A stretch of 64,000 nucleotides of DNA from Trifolium pratense. Its lineage: Eukaryota; Streptophyta; Magnoliopsida; Fabales; Fabaceae. The translations under genes were made by a program, and so were the position numbers. The notes beneath the pieces are model-generated. The model did no database searches. It saw only the letters and a program-made list of their open reading frames with translations, and was not told the DNA's origin. The stretch spans positions 17,770,866 through 17,834,865 of the forward strand of contig NC_060065.1 of NCBI RefSeq assembly GCF_020283565.1, given 5' to 3'. This document shows positions 23,001-26,000 of this stretch, in pieces (the first letter of the stretch is position 1; the number at the start of each line of letters is the position of its first letter).

Positions 23001-26000
23001 TACTTGGAAAAGACTGTTTGTATGAATAATTTACAATAATTTATAGGTGATATGTTCAGATACAGGGATTTATGCTATGCTCATAATTGTTATGATAGTG
23101 GGATTTATAGGTGACTCAGATTCAATTTAATTATGACTACGTTGGCTGAAACATTTTTAAGCCTGCCACCATAGCATCCAAGAAATAGCTTTACTTCTTA
23201 CGGCCATAATTTGACCTCCATTTTGTTGCTTTCATCAAGGTTGATGAAGTGAAAGTACCTCACATTCTTCCCTATACATCCGAGAGTGATATTGCCATTG
23301 CAGAGAGAACTCAACCTTGCCAAACCTGTCTTCCCTTCGTGATATTTCCCTTGTCGCCTGTCATCACACTCTAGTTATGGTTAGGGTTTCATGATCTATG
23401 TTCGCCTACACCTTGTGTCTTCACTTGTTCCACGTTTTCCCTCATCGTTACTAGAATCTTGTCTTTAATCTTCTGCAGCGCCAATTGCAATCTGGTTACC
23501 AATCCTTGCAATTCTTCTTCCACAACATCCGTGCACGTCTTCATCCTCTTTTAAACCATGAAATTCTGCGGCGGACGGCAATTCGAGAGTGCCTTTCTCT
23601 CCTTATACATTGAATGAGTTTCTAACTTACTAACTTCTCCCCTTACTATTTACTGCTAATTCCCTATTGTCAATAGGTTTAATGTCTTAATGGCAAATTC
23701 AAATGCTATGCATTTATAACTGTTATTTTGACAATAGTAACTGCTATTAATTAGTATATTGTATATAATAAATGTAGATATGACAGTTACATATTGATTG
23801 GGCTGAGAATCAGCCATATAGCTTGTAATTACATTGTATTTATATATGAGACTTCTCCTTGAGGAGAACACACAGTTTTCAGATCAATACTTCTATGAGT
23901 CTAACATTCTTTAAGTTTAACACCTATCACATATATTCTTTTGACCATGGTCCTCCAATCACTATTATTTCTATTGTTTTAGATCCGTTTGGGTGTTCAA
24001 CCGATTGAGTCTCTCGAAGGAATTTATCTTCATACACCAGATTCCTATGTTGTCATTTATAATGGTGTGATCCTTGGCAGGCATGCAAACCCACAGGTAT
24101 TGGATTGGTCTTTCTTTTATCAAGTGTATAATTCATACATAAACACATTCATGGTTTTATATCTCATTTGTTGCAAACCTTAAATTTTTCTTGTTCAAGG
24201 GTTATGCTAATCATATAAGAGGTATGCGGAGAAGAGGTGGTGGTATCAGCAAGTTTCTCAGTGTACATGTCAATGAAAAGCAGGTGCATATTTCTGCTGC
24301 AATTGATTGTTCCCCTTATTCCCCTATGTTTAATAGTATTCTCATTTTTTGCTGTTTAATCATTCCTTTTTGATGGAAAATTCTTATTTTTTTAATGTTT
24401 CAATTTTATATTTATAAATATGGCAACAGGCTTTTTGAAAGTATTCATGTTATATGCATAAGTTGTTTGTTTCTACTATTTGGCTCTGGTTTTATTTCTT
24501 TCCTTTTCCAAGAGCTATTTTAATATATTGTATTTCCTGTAACTATTTTAATGTTAAAAGGATGTGAGTGAAAATTGATTTTTATGGATAAGAACATGTC
24601 TCCAGTGTTGTATCTACTTAGCTTCTGATGGTGGTAGAGTTTGTCGTCCTCTTGTCATTGCTGACAAAGGGACCTCCAAAATAAAAGATCATCATATGAA
24701 CGAGTTGAAGGTAAGTGTATCATGTGCTTTTTATCTTGCAAATATTGAAAGGAAGATGCTTCTGCGATTAACTTAAATGCTTTTTTAGGAAAGAAAGCGC
24801 ACATTTGATTCTTTTGTAGAAGACGGTTTGGTTGAATATCTTGATGCTAATGAGGAAGATGATGCTTTGGTTTGTTTTCCTCTAATTACTTCTAGCTTCT
24901 TCTGTTTTTGAAATCTTATTCATGACAACAAGTAACTTCTATTTGCTATTTTATTTATAGATTGCATTATGTGAAGAAGATGCACAATTAGGAACAACAC
25001 ATATTGAGATTGATCCTTCTACTATCTTAGGAGTTTTGGCGGGGATAATTCCATATCCTCAGCATAATCACTCAATTGGAAACTTCAAACAGGTTGTCCC
25101 TTCTCCCTTCCTCTCCGTCGGTATACATAATTACATCATATATTGCATATGTATGAATGAATGGTTTTCTTTTTCCAACTTGAAATTTATGTATTTTTCT
25201 CACTGTAGTGCACAGTAGGGAAACAAGCAATTGGAAATATAGCATCTAACCAGGCAAGTAAACAGTTTGTTCCAAAAAATTTATTAAACAATTTATCAAA
25301 TTTAGATTCTTTCATTCTACGTGTGTAATCATGAAGTTTAAATCTCTCTTTTCCAGTTATGTCGGATGGATTCCTTGCTTAACCTTCTGGTTTATCCGCA
25401 ACGACCTTTGCTGACTACAAAAGCAATTGAGCTAGTTAGTAATTTTATTAATTATTTAATTTTGCTGAGTGAATAGCTCTAGCTAATATATAATTTTTAG
25501 GTTGGATATGATAAGCTTGGAGGAGGCCAGAATGCCATTGTAGCTATAATGAGCTATAGTGGTTATGATACAAGGGATGCAATTGTCATGAACAGATCGT
25601 CCATTGATCGGGGTTTTGGTCGTCGCACAGTTATGAAAACGTATGCAATTTTATTTGGTTATTTAGTGCATCTTGTTGCCTGGATATTTCGTATTTTATT
25701 TTATGCGTCCAGTTCTTAATGTCGAGTTTGATGTTCCTGGATGCATAGTGATACCGTCATCAAACAAAACTATACGAATGGCACATCCGATCGGTTTCGC
25801 TGTCCCAATAGAATTGCAGACACTACTGGACGTATGCAGGTGATATGCTTTATTGAATTGGATATGAATATTTCTTATACCTTTCTAAGTGGAAAGAATG
25901 ATTACAGAAAGAATAGATTGTAATTAAGATTAAAATCAACAGTTTCGTTCCTCTTGGAGCGCGCATGTTAGATGTATCACACTGGTCACAATGTATGCTT

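What the first reader, a model, noticed from the sequence alone, without database searches (positions are those of the whole stretch)
25501..25640. RPC2-like protein has Arg instead of Glu in the metal-B Glu-Asp pair
Sequence shows [12 protein letters not shown] (R735-D736, codons AGG GAT). The family motif is SGYDIEDAIVMN in Pol III and SGYNQED in Pol II, where the Glu-Asp pair (yeast Rpb2 E836/D837) helps bind the second catalytic magnesium. A Glu to Arg change needs two base changes and reverses the charge in the active site, while the surrounding motif is kept. An enzyme built with this subunit should be strongly impaired or have altered metal handling.
Basis: partly seen in the sequence, partly recalled or inferred. 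Interest (0 to 1): 0.92.

Follow-up and report, generated by a model that had tools for sequence, protein, structure and literature searches.

The report
Catalytically dead RPC2 gene copy, clover
Red clover carries a third, diverged copy of the gene for RNA polymerase III's second-largest subunit that has lost several active-site residues, not just one, yet kept its reading frame almost intact, so it is either a non-working stand-in subunit or a gene caught just as it dies.

Summary
In detail: codons AGG GAT at 25573-25578 read Arg735-Asp736 in [12 protein letters not shown], and two other Trifolium pratense database proteins show the same. But the gene (37 exons, 14055-35989) is not the plant's working RPC2. 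It is a third copy, 66% identical over 934 codons to two intact ones that have GAG GAT. The Arg is not alone: residues equivalent to yeast Rpb2 R766, R1020, E529 and H1097 are lost too; D837, K979 and K987 remain. Ten other second-largest-subunit loci read in this genome keep Glu-Asp. The copy has no stop in 1119 codons; dN/dS on its branch is 0.46, and 1 is rejected. Yet 84 of 413 plant-invariant positions changed, and a 1-nt deletion near 32980 truncates the protein unless an upstream donor is used. Most divergence therefore arose while the frame was still protected. I favour a catalytically dead pseudo-subunit, present function undecided; the main rival is an ordinary duplicate that died recently. 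Transcripts would decide. No orthologue appeared in the capped hit lists.

The parts
14055..35989 (+). RPC2-like paralogue, coding span from the ATG used by P0002 to the stop codon; 37 exons, 1119 codons
   Evidence: Exact spliced match guided by P0002. Exons: 14055-14084, 14178-14311, 14407-14478, 14576-14648, 14724-14814, 14929-14981, 15252-15316, 16381-16483, 16596-16703, 17019-17078, 18753-18791, 18991-19041, 19194-19292, 20037-20096, 20171-20287, 21286-21393, 21547-21657, 21889-22005, 23983-24096, 24200-24283, 24606-24710, 24789-24869, 24961-25092, 25209-25253, 25357-25434, 25501-25640, 25749-25839, 27078-27196, 27281-27410, 27498-27628, 30089-30214, 30285-30340, 31763-31833, 32899-32971, 34561-34664, 35159-35287, 35930-35989
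14022..14054 (+). possible upstream start: an in-frame ATG 33 bases before the annotated one
   Evidence: reads [11 protein letters not shown] before [10 protein letters not shown]; which start is used is unknown
25501..25640 (+). exon 26, holding the metal-B motif [12 protein letters not shown]
25573..25578 (+). codons AGG GAT = Arg735-Asp736, equivalents of yeast Rpb2 E836-D837
   Evidence: Glu in 106 of 106 plant RPC2
25078..25080 (+). Gly665 (GGA; AGA in both intact copies), equivalent of Rpb2 R766
   Evidence: Arg in 106 of 106
30090..30092 (+). Gly915 (GGA; CGA in both intact copies), equivalent of Rpb2 R1020
   Evidence: Arg in 106 of 106
21919..21921 (+). Leu469 in TRLVE where other copies have TPEGE (Rpb2 E529 by recall)
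   Evidence: Glu in 106 of 106
32914..32916 (+). Arg1004 in DKMRAT where other copies have DKMHAR (Rpb2 H1097 by recall)
   Evidence: His in 105 of 106, Gln in 1
32972..32988 (+). stretch with a 1-nt deletion against both intact copies, between a new upstream GT donor (32972) and the conserved donor (32989)
   Evidence: single frame break found by spliced alignment of P0021; donor scores 5.44 (new) and 7.18 (conserved)
34594..34596 (+). premature stop codon reached if the conserved donor is used
   Evidence: conserved-donor reading ends after 1039 residues

Best explanation
The locus is a DNA-level duplicate of the red clover RPC2 gene, the third in the genome, older than the split of T. pratense and T. 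repens, whose product can no longer do what RPC2 does: it has lost the metal-B glutamate and both arginines equivalent to yeast R766 and R1020, and further active-site motifs are broken. These losses most likely accumulated while the reading frame was still protected by selection, so for part of its history the plant kept a catalytically dead second-largest subunit (a pseudo-subunit). The likeliest role, inferred only, is non-catalytic: binding the largest and assembly subunits of Pol III and so buffering, competing with or regulating the working enzyme. Whether it still makes full-length protein is open, because a 1-nt deletion now makes the frame depend on an alternative splice donor. Shown: the sequence, the losses, two intact paralogues, constraint averaged over the branch, the deletion. 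Inferred: loss of catalysis, order of events, any role.
For: Losses at R766, E836 and R1020 equivalents, with R766A/Q and R1020K/Q lethal and E836A crippled in yeast (PMC3533926 passages). No stop in 1119 codons and 36 introns with GT or GC and AG. Branch omega 0.461 with omega 1 rejected (2 delta lnL 44.2) and bootstrap range 0.39-0.60. Positions that are less conserved in plants changed about twice as often as invariant ones (73 of 189 against 84 of 413), which full neutrality would not give. Neutral decay to this divergence leaves a mean of 14 stops, never fewer than 4 in 300 runs; a neutral phase short enough to leave no stop (0.03 substitutions per site, 3% of runs) changes only 6.5% of codons, against 20% of the invariant positions here. 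In Pol IV/V the Glu-Asp to Ala-Ala subunit still assembled (PMC2605557 passages), so a dead second subunit can join a complex.
Against: The 1-nt deletion truncates the protein if the conserved, better-scoring donor is used. 84 of 413 invariant positions are lost across most domains, not only at the active site; among ten residues of the literature set only 3 changed, close to the 20% background. Omega is above that of the intact copies (2 delta lnL 9.4), as expected of weakening selection. No transcript, peptide or orthologue was seen. The order argument uses totals and a two-phase model, and dates no single change.
Confidence: 0.55

Rival explanations
1. An ordinary redundant duplicate on its way out: selection weakened gradually because two other RPC2 genes do the work, active-site residues went with everything else, and the 1-nt deletion is its recent death. 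No non-catalytic role ever existed.
For: Two intact RPC2 genes; frame break with the conserved donor intact; raised omega; 84 of 413 invariant positions changed; no significant excess at the literature active-site set, 3 of 10; no orthologue in the capped lists; pseudogenes are common among duplicated plant second-largest-subunit genes (23 of 73 NRPD2/E2-like sequences in Viola, PMC2834690 abstract).
Against: No stop codon and no lost splice dinucleotide, against 14 stops expected for this much neutral change; if a dead protein were worth no more than no protein, stops should have followed the first fatal loss.
Confidence: 0.38
2. A working Pol III with altered metal binding: Arg735 and the other changes tune rather than abolish catalysis.
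For: Asp736 and the lysines equivalent to K979 and K987 are kept; in yeast E836A alone is viable (PMC3533926 passages).
Against: The arginines equivalent to R766 and R1020 are both Gly, and tested substitutions at each are lethal in yeast; a charge reversal at the Glu itself; even the fast-evolving NRPD2-like loci of this genome keep Glu-Asp and arginines at both places.
Confidence: 0.05
3. Sequencing or assembly error at the codon.
For: None found.
Against: Same residues in P0002 and P0003 from other contigs; many other substitutions in the same protein fit a diverged gene.
Confidence: 0.02

Closest known systems
Canonical plant RPC2 (NRPC2), e.g. P0021 = the C1 gene of T. pratense
   Same: Same seven Rpb2 Pfam domains (P0002 and P0021), 29 of 35 C1 intron positions and phases shared, best PDB matches are human and yeast RPC2
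   Different: 66% amino-acid identity over 934 codons; lost metal-B Glu, two NTP-side arginines and other motifs; one frame break
Pol IV/V second-largest subunit NRPD2/NRPE2
   Same: A fast-evolving plant duplicate of a second-largest subunit that changed many otherwise invariant residues (PMC2605557 passages)
   Different: NRPD2 derives from the Pol II lineage and keeps Glu-Asp; the three NRPD2-like loci here keep it too. The window copy derives from RPC2 and lost it
Duplicated RPC4 genes DGS1/DGS2 of rice
   Same: Duplicate Pol III subunit genes with loss of function in single copies (PMC5555463 abstract)
   Different: There the loss is by weak or no expression or absence; here active-site residues are lost within an almost intact frame

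Membership tests
RPC2 (Pol III second-largest subunit), by descent | Rpb2 domain set 1-7 | tested here: met
   P0002, the same gene in another assembly, matches all seven families above cut-off
RPC2 (Pol III second-largest subunit), by descent | closest to RPC2 rather than RPB2, RPA2 or NRPD2 | tested here: met
   PDB search: RPC2 631 and 618 bits, RPB2 380, Pol IV/V 226 and 210, RPA2 223; the named plant hits of the protein search are mostly RPC2
RPC2 (Pol III second-largest subunit), by descent | shared intron positions with intact RPC2 | tested here: met
   29 positions and phases shared with C1, 30 with C5
catalytic RPC2 | metal-B Glu-Asp pair | tested here: not met
   Arg-Asp; Glu in 106 of 106 plants
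catalytic RPC2 | arginines equivalent to Rpb2 R766 and R1020 | tested here: not met
   Gly665 and Gly915; Arg in 106 of 106 plants at both
catalytic RPC2 | four C-terminal cysteines of the clamp zinc site (role recalled) | tested here: met
   CRKC and CSSC kept; missing if the conserved donor is used
catalytic RPC2 | transcribed and assembled into Pol III | not testable with these tools
   no RNA or protein data in reach
pseudogene | in-frame stop codons | tested here: not met
   none in 1119 codons
pseudogene | frameshift | tested here: inconclusive
   one 1-nt deletion; an alternative donor keeps frame
pseudogene | neutral evolution (omega 1) | tested here: not met
   0.461 averaged over the branch, omega 1 rejected by 2 delta lnL 44.2; a short recent neutral phase is not excluded
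NRPD2/NRPE2 (Pol IV/V) | Pol II-type G(Y/F)NQEDS metal-B motif | tested here: not met
   SGYDTRDA; motif definition from PMC2605557 passages

The most novel reading that the evidence does not exclude
Red clover retains a catalytically dead Pol III second-largest subunit that still assembles and acts as a decoy or regulator of Pol III, its frame rescued from a 1-nt deletion by a newly arisen splice donor: a nuclear RNA polymerase pseudo-subunit without the metal-B glutamate.
Probability: 0.22. Interest if true: 0.8.

Novelty: new variant of a known kind. Interest (0 to 1): 0.45.

Why it matters
The metal-B Glu-Asp pair is described as invariant in multisubunit RNA polymerases (PMC2605557, passages). 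A natural copy that lost its Glu together with both NTP-side arginines, while the frame survived, makes it testable whether a polymerase subunit can be kept for a non-catalytic job. If the gene is merely dying, it is a well-resolved snapshot of a duplicate losing its active site before its frame, and a warning that a gene annotated as RPC2 need not be active. Two literature searches, for a catalytically inactive RPC2 paralogue and for a second-largest-subunit pseudoenzyme, returned no paper, nor did one for Trifolium Pol III subunit duplication; that library holds open-licence papers only.

Tried and rejected
Rejected: sequence error (three records agree); retrocopy (36 introns, most positions shared with C1 and C5); duplication inside red clover or inside Trifolium (AU p 0.001 and 0.002). 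An IRLC-stem position is not rejected (0.38) and the deeper placement has low support, so the age is uncertain. A statistical claim that losses concentrate at the active site: not supported. In the ten literature residues 3 changed against a 20% background; changed invariant sites are mildly clustered along the protein (33 neighbouring pairs, 25.3 expected, 115 of 5000 permutations as high), but the densest run is outside the catalytic motifs. Haplotype diversity as a neutral yardstick: C5 and its haplotig C86 differ at 24 of 16920 intron sites, too little to use. In one search the zero omega of the intact copies at plant-invariant sites follows from how the class was chosen, so I do not use it.

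Led nowhere: AlphaFold2 of P0002 with 40 sequences, mean pLDDT 48.6, pTM 0.36; no fold search was run on it. The first AU run failed on tree format and was redone. A search for a matching loss in a largest-subunit paralogue did not complete (last tried). Searches for orthologous fragments listed nothing above 77% identity; only the best 120 rows of each were shown, and the database is clustered at 90%. A paper on human Rpb2 E791 is not held. No homology was found between the window's 5' flank and the upstream DNA of C1 and C5.

Full report
What was checked. The stretch 25501-25640 is an exon reading [12 protein letters not shown] in frame. I first joined exons by eye, then by an exact spliced match to the closest database protein, P0002, adding the 15 residues that its annotation skips and setting the one residue where it differs: 37 exons, 1119 codons and a stop, 36 introns with AG acceptors, 35 GT donors and one GC donor. 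The pair is R735-D736, AGG GAT at 25573-25578. P0002 and P0003, both labelled Trifolium pratense, carry the same residues; P0002 differs from the window protein at 1 of 1104 aligned residues. The window lies at G000:C7:17770866-17834865 in a 413.6-Mb assembly.

What it is. A search of the window's own genome with the Rpb2 domain 6 family, followed by tblastn on fetched regions, shows three RPC2-type genes. C1 (about 41.695-41.708 Mb) is the gene of P0021, differing at 2 of 1145 residues. C5 (about 41.193-41.216 Mb) reads without stop or frame break, with C86 as a near-identical haplotig. The window copy is the third. A spliced alignment of the P0021 protein to these three loci, which does not depend on the P0002 model, finds no stop in any of them and exactly one frame break, in the window copy near 32980. 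In the hard-to-align stretches (N terminus, and residues around 285-330 and 400-420 of P0021) that alignment uses doubtful exons, so there I rely. Of the window copy's 38 introns in that alignment, 29 share position and phase with C1 and 30 with C5: a DNA-level duplicate, not a retrocopy.

The Arg is not alone. Mapping through human RPB2 in the PDB alignment gives a constant offset of 45 to yeast numbering for the residues checked. R766 is Gly665 (AGA to GGA), E836 is Arg735 (GAG to AGG), R1020 is Gly915 (CGA to GGA); D837, K979, R983, K987, N1013 and S1019 are kept. By motif, TPEGE is TRLVE and DKMHAR is DKMRAT; the yeast numbers E529 and H1097 for these are recalled. The first three and E529 are invariant in 106 of 106 plant proteins; the His is His in 105 and Gln in 1. 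In PMC3533926 (passages only) Rpb2 R766A/Q, R1020K/Q and D837A are lethal and E836A is slow with a severe fidelity defect. In PMC2605557 (passages only) the Glu-Asp pair is called invariant, and changing it in NRPD2 to Ala-Ala blocked function, while subunit assembly did not require it.

Controls inside the genome. I read the metal-B motif from ten other second-largest-subunit loci fetched here: two RPC2 (plus the haplotig), four RPB2-like, three NRPD2-like and one RPA2-like; these names are mine, from similarity and motifs. All ten have Glu-Asp. The three NRPD2-like loci also keep arginines at both places and TPDGE, but have Lys in place of the His in the one locus where that motif was found, so the His is not universal. 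Weaker hits at C2:29.3, C3:24.1, C4:22.6, C5:10.8 and C7:4.2 Mb were fetched; two gave partial matches (an rpoB-like one on C2 and an NRPD2-like fragment on C5) and three none. They are not counted.

Selection. Of 118 hits (P0004-P0121), 108 had 1100-1200 residues; P0016 and P0031, odd models, were then left out, leaving 106. At 724 positions with one clear legume state the window copy changed 84 of 413 that are invariant in all 106, 29 of 122 at 98 to under 100%, 42 of 104 at 90-98% and 31 of 85 below 90%. Each of eight control proteins, left out in turn, changed 0 to 2 of 417-419 invariant positions. By domain the changed fraction of invariant sites is 3 of 40 in the C-terminal clamp part, 2 of 24 in external 1, 31 of 180 in domain 6, 23 of 87 in the protrusion and lobe, and 12 of 39 in the fork. 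A three-branch codon model on 934 codons (poorly aligned stretches dropped) gives dN 0.198, dS 0.429, omega 0.461 for the window branch, 0.261 and 0.270 for C1 and C5; omega 1 for the window branch is rejected by 44.2 and equality with the intact copies by 9.4 (2 delta lnL, 1 df); bootstrap range 0.39-0.60 (60 replicates). As there is no outgroup in DNA, this branch includes the intact lineage before C1 and C5 split, so the copy's own omega is higher; by my arithmetic, assuming equal synonymous rates, roughly 0.6. That is inference.

Order of events. Neutral decay to the observed protein divergence leaves a mean of 14 stops, at least 4 in 300 runs. Starting from the present coding sequence, a neutral phase of 0.01, 0.02 or 0.03 substitutions per site leaves no stop in 30, 8.5 and 3% of 400 runs each and changes 2.2, 4.4 and 6.5% of codons. 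The copy has no stop, yet 20% of the invariant positions changed. So most of these changes, and probably the active-site ones, came while the frame was protected. The argument is about totals; no single substitution is dated, and it assumes a sharp boundary between constrained and neutral phases.

The frame break. Relative to both intact copies the window copy lacks one base just before the end of exon 34. With the conserved donor the protein ends after 1039 residues at 34594, losing the C-terminal domain. A GT at 32972, absent in C1 and C5, keeps frame and is the one in P0002. In a donor matrix from 103 donors of these genes the conserved donor scores 7.18 and the new one 5.44, so the new one is plausible, not preferred. 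That P0002 uses it suggests that the deletion is in that assembly too; I did not see its DNA.

Age. In the protein trees the copy sits within papilionoid legumes on a branch of about 0.7 substitutions per site, with low support for its exact place. Trees joining it to T. pratense C1 or to the two Trifolium proteins are rejected (AU 0.001, 0.002); a position with or beside the IRLC is not (0.38). At sites where T. pratense C1 is derived against 90% of the others the copy shares 0 of 18 states; at the looser 80% threshold it shares 6 of 43 (and 6 of 32 for Trifolium-derived sites, against 2 of 38 for Lotus), which leaves some signal for a younger age. Three protein searches listed no close relative outside T. 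pratense (best 65%), each showing its best 120 rows only.

Verdict. The finding is correct as an observation and understated as biology: an RPC2 paralogue that has lost its active site, not an RPC2 with one odd residue. Catalytically dead is very likely. Between a retained pseudo-subunit and a duplicate that has just died, the sequence leans to the former for its history and is undecided for today. Membership: RPC2 by descent, not a catalytic RPC2.

Noticed in passing
window 10703-11720 and 12421-13459: About 1 kb directly duplicated (94-100% identical in pieces, spacing 1.6-1.7 kb) just upstream of exon 1; no blastn match to the upstream DNA of the two intact RPC2 genes, so the 5' region may be new.
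   Followed up: partly
window 55-2505 (+) and 48290-49879 (-): Reverse-transcriptase ORFs with zf-RVT and RVT_3 domains, retroelement remains on both sides of the gene.
   Followed up: no
window 59481-60713 (+): ORF of 410 aa with an F-box domain.
   Followed up: no
window 18829-18926: Perfect (TA)49 array inside an intron of the RPC2-like gene.
   Followed up: no
L001, L002, L003 (G000:C7 about 6.256, 6.303 and 6.280 Mb): Three NRPD2-like loci within about 50 kb; L002 and L003 show an in-frame stop at the same aligned place where L001 has Trp, so two of the three may be broken.
   Followed up: partly
P0003 (25.1-kb T. pratense contig): Its gene model contains intron-derived stretches and skips exons, so it is no evidence for splicing.
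   Followed up: partly
L012-L014 (G000:C86): Short contig that repeats the C5 RPC2 gene with 0.14% intron difference, apparently a haplotig.
   Followed up: yes
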